From assembly GCA_017934975.1 (NCBI GenBank), contig JAGBIM010000022.1, positions 1 through 64,000 on the forward strand: a stretch of DNA of 64,000 bases. Reading direction: 5' to 3'. Numbering within the stretch: the stretch's first letter is position 1; every line of letters begins with the position of its first letter. The notes beneath the pieces were generated by a model. That model ran no database searches, was not told where the DNA came from, and saw only the letters and a program-made list of their open reading frames with translations. A program made the translations under genes and the position numbers. Source of the DNA: Clostridia bacterium (lineage in GTDB: Bacteria > Bacillota > Clostridia > Oscillospirales > UBA644). Shown here one piece after another: positions 1-8,057 of this stretch.

Positions 1-468
1 ATCACGGTATTTTTGATGATTATCTTTTGCGAGAGCTTCGGTGAGCACAGCAACCAAAGGACCGTTTCCGGAAAGATATACTGCACCTTCGTCTTCAACA
101 GGAGCATCATTTCCCTGATAGGTTTGTTTCACCGCAACATCAAGACCAACAAGCGTTTTACCTGCGCCGGGAACGCCAGTGACAAAACAAATGCTTTTTT
201 CTCCATTTGTCTTACTTTTTTGGATTACGTCAAGTATGTATTTGATTGTTGTATCGGTTGAAACCTTATCTGCCTCATGTCTTGTGATATTCTCAACTGA
301 ATGACTCTCATAAAGTGTTTTCGCCGCCTCAACAATAGTGGGCGTAGGTGCATAAGGGCTGATAATCCAATCGTTATGAACCGGAGTCTCATTCGGAAAT
401 TTATTCAATACGTTTTGAATCAGAGCGGAAATACCTGTCTTGCCGGTAATGAGCGGATTTATTACCAT
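1..468 (-). pseudogene. DUF2075 P-loop ATPase/helicase, 5'-truncated and cut by window edge
   Basis: The minus strand reads without a stop from an ATG at 468 to the window edge. It contains the Walker A motif GVPGAGKT followed by LVGLDVAVK, preceded by the stretch YAPTPTIVEAAKTLYESHSV. This matches my memory of the middle of DUF2075 proteins, a P-loop family annotated as ATPases or helicases. Family members usually carry well over 100 residues before this point, and those are missing here. A good ribosome binding site (AAAGGAGGTAA) serves a different ATG at 478, whose frame stops within about 26 codons. That suggests a frameshift or a deletion scar. The gene lies downstream of the AAA ATPase on the same strand, across an 86-bp gap. 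Family assignment is fairly secure. Pseudogene status is inferred, because the 3' part lies outside the window. Confidence 0.6.
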
Positions 469-536
469 ACTTTGACATTTTGATTACCTCCTTTCATTAT
501 GTTACCCTAATTCTAACAAAATGAAAGGCAAAAAGC

Positions 537-556
537 AAGTGGACAGGTGTCCACTT
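537..556. promoter_or_regulatory. 20-bp palindrome, possible operator
   Basis: AAGTGGACAGGTGTCCACTT has perfect 9-bp arms around a 2-bp centre and overlaps the stop codon of the upstream AAA/HTH protein. The spacer is too short for a good terminator hairpin and no T-run follows. A binding site for a dimeric repressor, possibly the HTH of the adjacent ATPase, is an inference. Confidence 0.45.
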
Positions 557-2327
557 ACTTTAACAACGCTTCTATAGATATATCCGCATATGTTGCTACA
601 GAAATGACATTTTCAAGCTTCGGAGATCTGAAGTGATCCCCTCTTCTGTGCCAAGACTTAATGGTATCAACTGATACATTCAGTTCTGTTGCCGCCATTT
701 CAAGGCTTTTATCTTTTTCTTTGATTACTTGATAGCAATTTTCTGCAATCTTTTGAGGATTCTTTTGAAACTCGACAACAACACTTTCCAAATTGAAAAC
801 ATCGCCAATCACAGATTTTAAAAGAGAGTTTCTTTCGAGTTTTGCGTCAATATATGAAACTATGGTTTCATCCTCCATACTCACAAATCCTACGCAGTTC
901 CATTCTTGCGGAATGAGATAGGGGCTGTGGGTGGAATAAACAACTCGGATGCCTTTTCGGGAAAGGTCCAAAAGGTCTATTAATATCTCCTTTTGTGCAC
1001 TCGGATGGAGCATTGATGCCGGCTCATCGATAATAAAGGTATCGCCCTCGGAAAGTGTGCACTTTACAAAGTAGTATGTAAAATACCACCGTCTGCCCGC
1101 ACTTGTTTTGTTCAGCGAAACGATTTGACCGTTATTTTCTTCGAGCTTGATCACGAGCTCATTCTTTTCACCAAGTGATACCGTGATGCTCTTATACATT
1201 CCTTCGTCAAAGGTCGGTCTGTTGCTGTTAAGCCACTCTTCAAACTCTTTGATCTCAGCATCGCTCAGCTTATGCTCTTTATCTCCAAGTAGCTTCGGCT
1301 TGTTATTTGCTTTGGCATATGCTTCGAAAACAACACGGGAAGGATCGTAATAGCGATTGTCATTTTCTCTTCGCAGATCCTTGAAAAGCACCTGATTGCT
1401 TTCATTCAAAAGATACCCGCAATTACCTCCGAATATGTGGCGAACCTTTCTCAAAAATTCAGTGATTGCACCGCAGGGGTCTGTGTCCATCAGTCTTTCG
1501 GACTGTGCTTTCAGTTTGGAGATAAGCTCATCGATCTTTTGACGGGAATCTTCCGTCTTTTTGTTGATCTTTGTGATCTCACACTTTATCGCCGTTTCGT
1601 TAATCGTAATGAATTTTTGTTCAAAGGGGGCAAGTTCAGGCTTCGTATATTTTAGTTTAAACGGAACAAGCTCTGTGTCAAGAGAACAAATATTACCTAT
1701 ACCAAAATGGTAATTTGAAAAAACAAAGCTATTATCAGTCTTTATGCCATCGGCATATACCTCAGACATTCGTTTTACTTGGTCTGCGAAAAGGCTTGCT
1801 CTGGATTTTAAAAACTCACAATTGGTGGTGTTACCTTTGCCGTCAGTCAATTCGTATCCGCGTAAAGAAAGAGCGTCCCGATCATCATAGGCAATTTTTT
1901 GTAATGCCTTTTCATAAGTTTCTATTGCTGCTATGAGCTCATTTGCAACCGCTCTGATATCTACCAACTCTTTTTTGAGTAGCGGAACGATGGACTCGGA
2001 TTCGATCGTGTCAATATGGAGAGTGTCTTTGCTGGAAGAGCATGCGGCAAAGGTCGCTTTCTCTTCCGAATACTCTTCACTGGGAAAAAGCTTTGCAAAT
2101 TCATCTTTTTCCAAACGAATATGCGCCTTGTACTGAAGTCCGCCTGCGCTGTGTTTTCCCGGAAGATTAGCATTAGTGGAAGCGATGTGCTCAAGGGCTT
2201 CAAGAAGGTTACTCTTTCCGCTTCCGTTTTTTCCGATCAGAACGGTCGGAAGTCCATCTTGAAAATTGACCGAAACCGGAGAGGCAATGGACTTATAATT
2301 ATTAATATCGATTTTGATCAGCTTCAT
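555..2327 (-). CDS. OLD/RecF-like AAA ATPase with C-terminal helix-turn-helix
   Basis: I chose the ATG at 2327 (590 aa) because GAGGTG lies 6 nt upstream; a GTG at 2336 is in frame but overlaps that site. The protein starts like an SMC/RecF/OLD ATPase, with Walker A GKNGSGKS at residues 32-39. A long helical insert follows, then a signature-like NKTSAGRRW, Walker B TFIIDEP at about 430 and a switch histidine in STHSP at about 466. OLD nucleases carry a Toprim domain after the ATPase. Here there is none; residues 541-590 instead look like an XRE-type helix-turn-helix (AATELNVSVDTIKSWHRRG). The next gene on the strand is a truncated DUF2075 ATPase. A role in phage defence or DNA metabolism is plausible but unproven. 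The ATPase family is confident, the function is not. Confidence 0.75.
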   Translation of the reverse strand: MKLIKIDINNYKSIASPVSVNFQDGLPTVLIGKNGSGKSNLLEALEHIASTNANLPGKHSAGGLQYKAHIRLEKDEFAKLFPSEEYSEEKATFAACSSSKDTLHIDTIESESIVPLLKKELVDIRAVANELIAAIETYEKALQKIAYDDRDALSLRGYELTDGKGNTTNCEFLKSRASLFADQVKRMSEVYADGIKTDNSFVFSNYHFGIGNICSLDTELVPFKLKYTKPELAPFEQKFITINETAIKCEITKINKKTEDSRQKIDELISKLKAQSERLMDTDPCGAITEFLRKVRHIFGGNCGYLLNESNQVLFKDLRRENDNRYYDPSRVVFEAYAKANNKPKLLGDKEHKLSDAEIKEFEEWLNSNRPTFDEGMYKSITVSLGEKNELVIKLEENNGQIVSLNKTSAGRRWYFTYYFVKCTLSEGDTFIIDEPASMLHPSAQKEILIDLLDLSRKGIRVVYSTHSPYLIPQEWNCVGFVSMEDETIVSYIDAKLERNSLLKSVIGDVFNLESVVVEFQKNPQKIAENCYQVIKEKDKSLEMAATELNVSVDTIKSWHRRGDHFRSPKLENVISVATYADISIEALLK

Positions 2328-2361
2328 ACTGCACACCTCGCAACATACCTTTGTTATTGAT

Positions 2362-2390
2362 ATTATACCATATTTTCACTCTTATTTCAA
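2362..2390 (-). promoter_or_regulatory. Sigma-A-type promoter of the AAA/HTH gene
   Basis: On the minus strand TTGAAA (2390-2385) is separated by 17 bp from TATAAT (2367-2362), 35 bp before the chosen ATG. Confidence 0.65.
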
Positions 2391-2429: not shown

Positions 2430-2522
2430 TTTCTTTGTCTACTGCGGAGCAATCATTGATATTGGTACTGATATATCCGCGCACATGGAAATGATCGGGA
2501 TTGTAGCAAAAATCGGAACAAT
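2430..2522 (+). repeat. Dispersed intergenic repeat, copy A
   Basis: This stretch is nearly the same as 7927-8020; the core (GATATTGGTACTGA to AAAATCGGAACA) differs at only a few bases. Several differences fall at third positions of one frame (GAIxDIGTDISAHMEMIG), and copy A's frame ends with TAA at 2557, just before a terminator. That is compatible with the 3' end of a lost gene. I do not recognise the peptide. The region 2328-2945 holds no intact gene: only the promoter above, this repeat, a terminator and a tRNA fragment. Confidence 0.6.
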
Positions 2523-2533
2523 CCAAAAAGGCC

Positions 2534-2562
2534 TTGACAAACCTCTGATTCAGAGTTAACAT
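2534..2562 (+). promoter_or_regulatory. Orphan promoter-like sequence
   Basis: TTGACA (2534-2539), 17 bp and TAACAT (2557-2562) form a promoter-like pair. It is followed within 15 bp by a terminator and by no gene, so any transcript would be very short. Confidence 0.35.
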
Positions 2563-7908: not shown

Positions 7909-7926
7909 GCAACGCGTTGTTGCGTT

Positions 7927-8020
7927 TTTTCATCCACTACGGGGCAATCACTGATATTGGTACTGACATATCCGCACACATGGAAATGATCGGGCGTGTG
8001 GCAAAAATCGGAACAAACCT
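7927..8020 (+). repeat. Dispersed intergenic repeat, copy B
   Basis: This closely matches copy A (2430-2522) from CTACxGxGGxGCAATCA through AAAATCGGAACAA. It fills the gap between two divergent genes and ends just before the promoter of 8089. Confidence 0.65.
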
Positions 8021-8028
8021 CGAGGGAC

Positions 8029-8057
8029 TTGAAAGTCGGGCGCATTTGTGCTATACT
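8029..8057 (+). promoter_or_regulatory. Promoter of the gene at 8089
   Basis: TTGAAA (8029-8034), 17 bp, TATACT (8052-8057), directly downstream of repeat copy B. Confidence 0.65.

What the first reader, a model, noticed from the sequence alone, without database searches (positions are those of the whole stretch)
1..2390. OLD-like ATPase whose nuclease end is replaced by a DNA-binding domain, beside a truncated DUF2075 ATPase and a 20-bp palindrome
The ATPase has Walker A, Walker B and the switch His but no Toprim; its last ~50 residues look like an XRE HTH. Downstream lie a perfect palindrome and a 5'-truncated P-loop ATPase. Together this could be an autoregulated, possibly defence-related two-ATPase module, now partly broken. 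Defence is inference only.
Basis: partly seen in the sequence, partly recalled or inferred. Interest (0 to 1): 0.55.

Follow-up and report, generated by a model that had tools for sequence, protein, structure and literature searches.

The report
ATPase with swappable nuclease switch
In gut bacteria of the Clostridia group, a likely anti-phage ATPase carries its own DNA-binding domain and, by sequence evidence, uses it to control the gene of a partner DNA-cutting enzyme next door; in this genome that partner gene has been lost and only its switch, start signal and first codons remain.

Summary
In detail: a 590-aa OLD/PtuA-like ATPase without Toprim but with a C-terminal XRE-type helix-turn-helix (HTH), a near-perfect 20-bp palindrome, and a 5'-truncated DUF2075 gene. 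The two-ATPase reading does not. All seven full relatives found carry the HTH and are followed by a ~103-aa HNH nuclease gene, not DUF2075. In the window the nuclease's ribosome-binding site and first four codons survive, then DUF2075 begins at its codon 148: a likely deletion. The palindrome belongs to the lost gene's promoter: its centre lies 31 bp upstream of the -10 box, and 13 of 15 HTH-bearing loci have a palindrome at 30.5-32 bp although its sequence changes. Palindrome sequence follows the HTH, not the ATPase body. The same nuclease also sits behind two unrelated protein types, each with a separate small HTH gene and such a palindrome; three nuclease loci without a recognised HTH lack it. 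Best reading: the ATPase is also the transcription factor of its effector nuclease, activator slightly favoured over repressor. It resembles Septu in parts and M.SsoII/C-proteins in control. Phage defence is inferred. New variant of a known kind; this copy is broken.

The parts
555..2327 (-). OLD/PtuA-like AAA_15 ATPase, 590 aa, no Toprim match
   Evidence: body dN/dS 0.19 against L006
558..785 (-). coding region of the C-terminal XRE-type helix-turn-helix domain
2362..2390 (-). promoter-like site of the ATPase: TTGAAA, 17 nt, TATAAT (11 of 12)
   Evidence: matches of this kind are expected by chance in the scan (5 found, 4.7 expected)
537..556 (-). operator-like palindrome AAGTGGACACCTGTCCACTT, centre 31 bp upstream of the -10 box; overlaps the ATPase stop codon
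532..561 (-). the same palindrome read as a terminator-like hairpin (13 pairs, 5 G-C) followed by T-rich sequence
510..515 (-). -10 box TAGAAT of the lost nuclease gene's promoter (hexamer at -35, 17-nt spacing, is TTGCTT at 533-538, 3 of 6)
487..492 (-). ribosome-binding site AGGAGG of the nuclease gene
   Evidence: conserved in most relatives
467..478 (-). surviving first four codons (MSKY) of the HNH nuclease gene; beyond the junction this frame stops after 25 residues
467..469 (-). 3-bp microhomology (TAT) at the junction between nuclease gene and DUF2075
   Evidence: one search compared
1..468 (-). 5'-truncated DUF2075 / SLFN-g3 helicase-like gene (PDC-S41), running off the contig end

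Best explanation
The ATPase is one half of a two-gene, probably anti-phage, ATPase + HNH nuclease system and is at the same time the transcription factor of its partner. It has its own promoter. Its C-terminal HTH binds, presumably as a dimer, the palindrome between the two genes, which abuts the -35 position of the nuclease promoter, and sets the level of nuclease mRNA, most likely as an activator in the way of lambda CI or R-M controller proteins (inferred), possibly in response to infection sensed by the ATPase (inferred). The ATPase probably also works with the nuclease as protein, as PtuA does with PtuB (inferred). In this genome a deletion removed the nuclease, leaving ATPase, operator and promoter in front of a DUF2075 fragment. 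Shown by sequence: HTH, HNH partner in relatives, operator geometry, operator-HTH covariation, the junction. Inferred: binding, sign of control, defence. My estimate that the HTH controls the nuclease gene through the palindrome, whichever sign, is about 0.8; the confidence given is for the activator form.
For: HNH gene directly downstream in 7 of 7 full relatives. Across 15 HTH-bearing loci (window included) the mean palindrome score at exactly 31.0 bp from the -10 box is 5.73 of 8, next offset 2.87, maximum over offsets in 1000 mononucleotide shuffles 3.53; 13 of 15 have at least 6 of 8 within 30.5-32 bp (2.5% expected per locus). One locus per operator type (six, picked by me, L048's left out) gives 6.83 in the 30.5-32 window against at most 5.33 in 1000 shuffles. 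Three nuclease loci without a recognised HTH score 4, 2, 2 there and 5 at best anywhere 15-60 bp upstream. Among the eight fused ATPases operator similarity follows HTH identity (Mantel r 0.72, 0 of 5000 permutations), not the body (r -0.02, p 0.46): window/L006 body 82%, HTH 24%, operator 5 of 16; L047/L049 body 92%, HTH 28%, operator 6 of 16; window/L009 body 46%, HTH 55%, operator 15 of 16. Operators stay while flanks drift: window/L009 15 of 16 against 9 of 23 in the spacer; L042/L044 16 of 16 against 9 of 23. HTH fold closest to C.AhdI and SinR. For activation: site abuts -35, spacing to -10 nearly fixed, -35 hexamers mostly weak (mean 3.1 of 6, range 2-5).
Against: No binding or expression data. 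A repressor could use the same site. HTH code and palindrome are adjacent, so one recombination event could carry both without a functional link. L048 has only a degenerate palindrome (4 of 8) and L043 scores 5 of 8. In 6 of 8 ATPase loci the palindrome is itself a terminator-like hairpin. The 15 loci are related and not independent; the Mantel test has eight sequences, two of them (L009, L047) close. Some -35 hexamers are fair (L067 5 of 6, four others 4 of 6). The control loci are few, and L069 has no convincing -10 (CAGGGT). No PADLOC model matched the partner proteins of the other types (5 of 5).
Confidence: 0.5

Rival explanations
1. Same operator and same HTH, but the ATPase is a repressor that keeps the nuclease low until infection, in the manner of CapS or RptR.
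For: The site touches the -35 region; XRE domains of CapH and SinR (repressors, as I recall) are among the structural matches; the published immune regulators CapS and RptR are repressors (passages, abstract).
Against: The centre stays within 30.5-32 bp of -10 across four to six different operator sequences, which activation needs and repression does not; most -35 hexamers are weak.
Confidence: 0.3
2. The palindrome is only the intrinsic terminator of the ATPase gene, and the HTH binds something else, for instance phage DNA.
For: Hairpin of 13 pairs with a T-rich tail at 532-561; the best terminator-like hairpin overlaps the palindrome in 6 of 8 ATPase loci.
Against: L006 has the palindrome without such a hairpin, and in 6 of 7 separate-HTH loci another terminator-like hairpin ends 4-16 bp before the operator (none found by the rule in L068); a terminator needs neither a fixed distance to -10 nor sequence conservation, and both are seen; the three loci without a recognised HTH lack it, two of them keeping a terminator-like hairpin elsewhere.
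Confidence: 0.12
3. The ATPase and DUF2075 form an autoregulated two-ATPase module.
For: Adjacency in the window only.
Against: DUF2075 found near 0 of 7 ATPase relatives in the DNA fetched (the contigs of L048 and L006 are short); both the nuclease and the DUF2075 genes are truncated at the junction.
Confidence: 0.02
4. The junction at 467-469 is an assembly chimera at a contig end and the real genome still has the nuclease (does not exclude the control model).
For: The junction lies within 470 bases of the contig end of a 71%-complete MAG.
Against: Only 3 bp are shared at the junction, shorter than usual assembler words (recalled); G000 shows no HNH relative at the limits, though 29% of the genome may be missing.
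Confidence: 0.2

Closest known systems
Septu (PtuA ATPase + PtuB HNH nuclease) and the PtuAB effectors of type I-A retrons (PMC11555353, PMC13096335: passages read)
   Same: AAA ATPase followed by a separate HNH nuclease gene; PtuA models and PDB chains of retron PtuA are among the matches.
   Different: 41 bits against a cut-off of 500 for NCBIfam PtuA; the HNH proteins matched no PADLOC model called PtuB; the ATPase ends in an XRE HTH and the nuclease has its own operator-like palindrome and promoter.
M.SsoII / M.Ecl18kI (R-M methyltransferase with an N-terminal regulatory domain modelled on phage 434 repressor; PMC3978073, passages read)
   Same: An enzyme of the system carries a DNA-binding domain for a quasi-palindrome between the genes (AGGACAAATTGTCCT, core GGACA..TGTCC as here) and thereby stimulates the partner nuclease gene.
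   Different: Methyltransferase instead of ATPase; domain at the N-terminus; it acts by repressing its own promoter, whereas here the half-site was not found at the ATPase promoter.
R-M controller (C) proteins such as C.AhdI, C.Esp1396I, C.BclI (PMC4041747 and PMC3874152, passages read)
   Same: XRE fold (among the top structural matches); operator at a nuclease promoter; in two of the partner types here a small stand-alone HTH protein.
   Different: No methyltransferase seen in the unit; the regulator is fused to an ATPase in the window's type; one operator seen instead of OL/OR.
OLD family ATPase-nucleases
   Same: ATPase domain (PDB 6p74, OLD family, E 3.5e-9).
   Different: No Toprim nuclease domain.
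CapK/CapS and RptR regulators of defence operons (PMC13373217 passages, PMC12255303 abstract and outline)
   Same: Palindrome-binding regulators next to immune genes.
   Different: Those are separate repressors; here the DNA-binding domain is part of the ATPase.
PDC-S41 (PADLOC candidate, DUF2075)
   Same: The gene fragment at 1-468.
   Different: Not a conserved partner of this ATPase.

Membership tests
Septu (PtuA/PtuB) | ATPase reaches the curated PtuA score | tested here: not met
   41 bits against cut-off 500 for NF041760
Septu (PtuA/PtuB) | separate HNH nuclease gene next to the ATPase | tested here: met
   7 of 7 full relatives; Pfam HNH/HNH_4 in the four scanned, two of them below the curated cut-offs; lost in the window
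Septu (PtuA/PtuB) | the nuclease belongs to the PtuB family | tested here: inconclusive
   none of four HNH proteins matched a PADLOC model named PtuB at E up to 0.1; two matched Cas9 HNH regions weakly; that PtuB models are in the library was not checked
Septu (PtuA/PtuB) | PtuA-PtuB protein complex | not testable with these tools
   no complex prediction available
OLD family | C-terminal Toprim nuclease domain | tested here: not met
   no Toprim match; XRE-type HTH instead
PARIS (AriA/AriB) | AriA ATPase with AriB Toprim partner | tested here: not met
   AriA models are the best PADLOC hits (E 5.5e-26), with profile lengths like Pfam AAA_15 and AAA_21, so probably generic (inference); the partner in relatives is HNH
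R-M unit with C-protein control | XRE regulator | tested here: met
R-M unit with C-protein control | operator at the nuclease promoter | tested here: inconclusive
   sequence geometry fits; binding not tested
R-M unit with C-protein control | cognate DNA methyltransferase | tested here: inconclusive
   none noticed by eye in the ORF lists of the ATPase-type loci; two loci of other types have one within a few kb, L067 and L043
anti-phage defence system | protects against phage | not testable with these tools
   only indirect: one chosen neighbour each in L042, L043, L047, L067, L068 matches PADLOC models

The most novel reading that the evidence does not exclude
The HTH-operator pair is an exchangeable connector: one HNH effector gene, with its operator, is plugged behind unrelated partner proteins (OLD-like ATPase, DUF4238 protein, a family without Pfam match), each of which supplies a matching HTH, fused or separate. 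In the ATPase form one polypeptide both senses infection and switches on transcription of its own nuclease, and HTH plus operator are swapped together by recombination so that neighbouring systems do not cross-talk.
Probability: 0.35. Interest if true: 0.75.

Novelty: new variant of a known kind. Interest (0 to 1): 0.6.

Why it matters
Two-gene ATPase-nuclease defence systems are usually discussed as controlled at the protein level (my reading of the field). Here the sequence record points to a second layer, with the ATPase carrying the DNA-binding domain for its effector's promoter. It gives a directly testable link between HTH subtype and operator, with natural swaps as controls, and suggests how one effector can be recruited by unrelated partners.

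Tried and rejected
Relatives in IMG/VR: none confirmed for the ATPase or the HNH. HNH in phage records: none; in plasmid records one, Mycoplasmopsis cynos, 43% identity, with a different annotated neighbour. AlphaFold of the whole ATPase with two sequences failed (mean pLDDT 42.5), so no fold search was made with it; only the C-terminal model was used (best of five; the others 46-54). Foldseek gave no match at E <= 0.001 and VIA-align Z values of 7-8.5 are modest for a small helical domain; I rely on them only together with the profile matches.

Sensor-promoter comparison: sensor promoters were picked as the best of 120 bases, nuclease promoters at a fixed place, so the contrast in -35 quality is biased and is only a hint. 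In a first pass the start of L011 was misassigned; corrected. Weaker HNH rows were dropped and not studied: 13 and 5 new ones (E 1.3e-21 to 2.4e-12; open frames 155-956 aa), and L012, L013. L008 (Paenibacillus, 27% over part of the ATPase) was not studied either. One search (2 of 2 genomes of one genus) gave only known loci. HTHs of L044 and L068 were recognised by reading the translations, not by a model.

Literature: Septu papers (listing; passages of PMC11555353 and PMC13096335); the Septu structure paper PMC12318543 is not held. Searches for an ATPase-HTH-HNH arrangement listed no paper whose title or shown start of abstract describes it; one search listed 15 of 19 and 15 of 186 papers, and papers outside that library were not searched. 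PMC12799240 (abstract and outline) describes another interchangeable effector pair. The lambda CI geometry (-42) and gene labels such as manganese catalase are recalled, not looked up.
Full report
What is there. The window is the first 64 kb of contig C33 of a 71%-complete genome. On the minus strand lies a 590-aa ATPase (2327..555) with AAA_15/AAA_21 matches and no Toprim match, and with Walker A, Walker B and STH motifs. The last ~75 residues are an XRE-type helix-turn-helix by several moderate lines of evidence: eight homologous C-termini as a profile match PDB 3bs3 at E 8e-4 and the separate HTH proteins described below with hhalign probability 94%; modelled alone the domain has pLDDT 84.6 in the best of five models, and its top structural matches include C.AhdI, SinR, C.BclI, P22 c2 and CapH, none at Foldseek E <= 0.001. 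The palindrome (537-556) overlaps the stop codon; its arms are perfect and its two central bases are not.

The real partner. In named genome contigs one full relative was found (L006, 71%), a decayed one (L007, first 38 residues) and a partial distant hit (L008, not studied). A search of 394 genomes of the order found matches in 4, the window's own and three more (L009, L010, L011). Each of these four full relatives is followed by a ~103-aa HNH nuclease gene beginning MSKY/MSKF (Pfam HNH/HNH_4). A profile of this nuclease (A1) matched 25 of 395 genomes of one family at E <= 1e-6, 14 of them strongly (E <= 2e-48), and 12 of 325 genomes of the order at E <= 1e-12, 6 strongly, 3 of these new. Searches of 398 genomes of the phylum (2 weak matches), 227 of another family (2, both known), 2 of a genus (2, both known) and 4 of a third family (1, known) added no strong locus. 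That makes 17 strong nuclease loci; L006 and L014 are the same contig by length and sequence.

Partners of the nuclease. In 7 of 17 the upstream gene is the ATPase with the fused HTH (L006=L014, L009, L010, L011, L047, L048, L049). In 4 it is a 362-379-aa protein (two scanned, no convincing Pfam match) followed by a separate ~72-aa HTH protein (L041, L042, L050, L067). In 3 it is a DUF4238 protein followed by a separate HTH (L043, L044, L068). In 1 it is a 502-aa protein with no recognised HTH and the nuclease 31 bp behind it (L045). In 2 no partner was seen (L046; L069, where the contig ends 656 bases upstream). Evidence. The partner types show no similarity to each other at E 1e-4, except that the first 45 residues of the 502-aa protein match a stretch upstream of the partner in L050. 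The nuclease itself is close across types (L009 versus L041 88%, L044 83%, L006 84%), so it has moved between partners. The HTH gene of L067 has an in-frame stop, and the nuclease frame of L050 has one.

What is broken in the window. Most relatives share, with small variations, AAAGGAGGTA(A/C)TCAAAATGTCAAAGTA at the nuclease start. The window has the same ribosome-binding site and ATGTCAAAGTAT, then turns into DUF2075 sequence. A DUF2075 gene with 97% aa identity over the fragment lies in genome G034 of the same family, itself cut by a contig end; the window's copy starts at its codon 148, out of frame with the nuclease start. The two sequences share only TAT at the joint, as expected for a deletion between short homologies; an assembly chimera is not excluded. 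DUF2075 is not found near any of the seven ATPase relatives in the DNA fetched. The ATPase itself is intact and its body has dN/dS 0.19 against L006.

The palindrome is part of the nuclease promoter. Aligning the nuclease upstream regions by their -10 box shows a palindrome centred 30.5-32 bp upstream of -10 in most HTH-bearing loci: GTGGACA-N2-TGTCCAC (window, L009, L047), GGGTACA-N2-(T/A)GTACCC (L010, L011), GGGTGGTGCGCCACCC (L049), TGAAC-CGA-GTTCA (L006), AACC-N4-GGTT (L041, L042, L043, L044, L050, L067), TGAACCGACGGTTCA (L068). The mean score of the 15 loci at 31.0 bp is 5.73 of 8, next best offset 2.87; the maximum over all offsets in 1000 mononucleotide shuffles was 3.53. Thirteen of 15 loci reach 6 of 8 within 30.5-32 bp; L043 reaches 5 and L048 4. 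Since the loci are related, I also took one locus per operator type (six; my choice, L048 left out): 6.83 in that 30.5-32 window, 3.67 in the best other window, at most 5.33 in 1000 shuffles. The three loci without a recognised HTH score 4, 2 and 2 and at most 5 anywhere 15-60 bp upstream; L069 has no convincing -10. With -10 at -12 the centre is at about -43, so a 16-bp site ends where a -35 box would begin.

The operator follows the HTH. Among the eight fused ATPases, operator similarity correlates with HTH identity (Mantel r 0.72; 0 of 5000 permutations) and not with identity of the ATPase body (r -0.02, p 0.46). Two natural swaps stand out: window/L006 (body 82%, HTH 24%, operator 5 of 16) and L047/L049 (body 92%, HTH 28%, operator 6 of 16). 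Conversely window and L009 differ through most of the protein (46%) but share 15 of 16 operator bases. Synonymous sites in the swapped HTH regions are saturated or nearly so while those of the body are not, so the HTH was probably exchanged by recombination. A caution: HTH code and operator are adjacent, so linkage alone could carry them together; the conservation of operators against drifting flanks (15 of 16 versus 9 of 23 for window/L009, 16 of 16 versus 9 of 23 for L042/L044) and the constant spacing argue for function. In the 13 loci scanned for exact half-sites (L048 and L050 not scanned) these occur at the nuclease promoter and not at the promoter of the partner gene; single half-sites occur elsewhere in five of them.

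Terminators. By one simple rule the best terminator-like hairpin overlaps the palindrome in 6 of 8 ATPase loci; in 6 of 7 separate-HTH loci it ends 4-16 bp before the operator; none is found in L006, L048 and L068. So in most loci the partner's transcript probably ends before the nuclease gene, and where the HTH gene is separate the operator is not the terminator.

How it probably works. Step 1, shown by sequence only: ATPase and nuclease have separate promoter-like sites with a hairpin between them. Step 2, inferred: the ATPase binds the palindrome through its HTH. Step 3, inferred and less sure: binding recruits RNA polymerase, because the site has the position used by lambda CI (recalled) and recalls the activating site of C-proteins, which recruit the sigma subunit (PMC4041747, passages), because -35 is mostly weak (mean 3.1 of 6, range 2-5), and because spacing is fixed; repression remains possible. 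Step 4, inferred from Septu: ATPase and HNH act together during infection. Defence is supported only by context: one neighbour each from L042, L043, L047, L067 and L068 matches PADLOC models, but I picked them because they looked like defence genes and ran no control, and the five partner proteins of the other types matched no PADLOC model.

Comparison and novelty. It works like a Septu-type ATPase-HNH pair put under the kind of control known from M.SsoII (PMC3978073) and R-M controller proteins; by the tests listed it is a member of none of these as far as they could be tested. I found no description of this arrangement in the searches named under Tried and rejected. I rate it a new variant of a known kind. 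The copy in the window is a relic without its nuclease; the interest lies in the family it revealed.

Noticed in passing
window 2430-2537 and 7925-8032: 108-nt direct repeat, 83% identical, 5.5 kb apart; only these two copies were found in the held genome. Function unknown; the first copy lies just upstream of the ATPase promoter.
   Followed up: partly
L007:6001-6114: Decayed ATPase start (first 38 residues, 92% identical) near a gene that I take for a manganese catalase (label recalled) and a METKD... XRE regulator that also occur in the window; suggests turnover at a shared hot spot.
   Followed up: partly
L049:5260-5445, L006:8226-8345, and L041, L047, L050: Small gene (about 55 aa) downstream of the HNH gene in both the ATPase and the 375-aa partner types; also an NNPNN-rich 58-aa gene (L043, L045, L049) and an acidic 59-aa gene (L010, L067).
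   Followed up: partly
L009 versus L047: Synonymous divergence of the HTH region (0.11) is much lower than that of the ATPase body (0.44), as if the HTH-operator segment had been homogenised recently.
   Followed up: no
L056:5282-5512: A small XRE-like gene directly precedes the DUF2075 (PDC-S41) gene in G034; similar small genes precede the type IV restriction gene in L068 and, with one ORF between, DUF2075 in L057.
   Followed up: no
L045:6604 and L050:2402-2518: The first 45 residues of the 502-aa partner in L045 match (64%) a stretch just upstream of the partner gene in L050, perhaps a remnant of partner exchange.
   Followed up: no
L028-L040, L061-L065: Weaker relatives of the HNH domain, mostly inside larger reading frames (155-956 aa), in the same order; possible fused effectors.
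   Followed up: no
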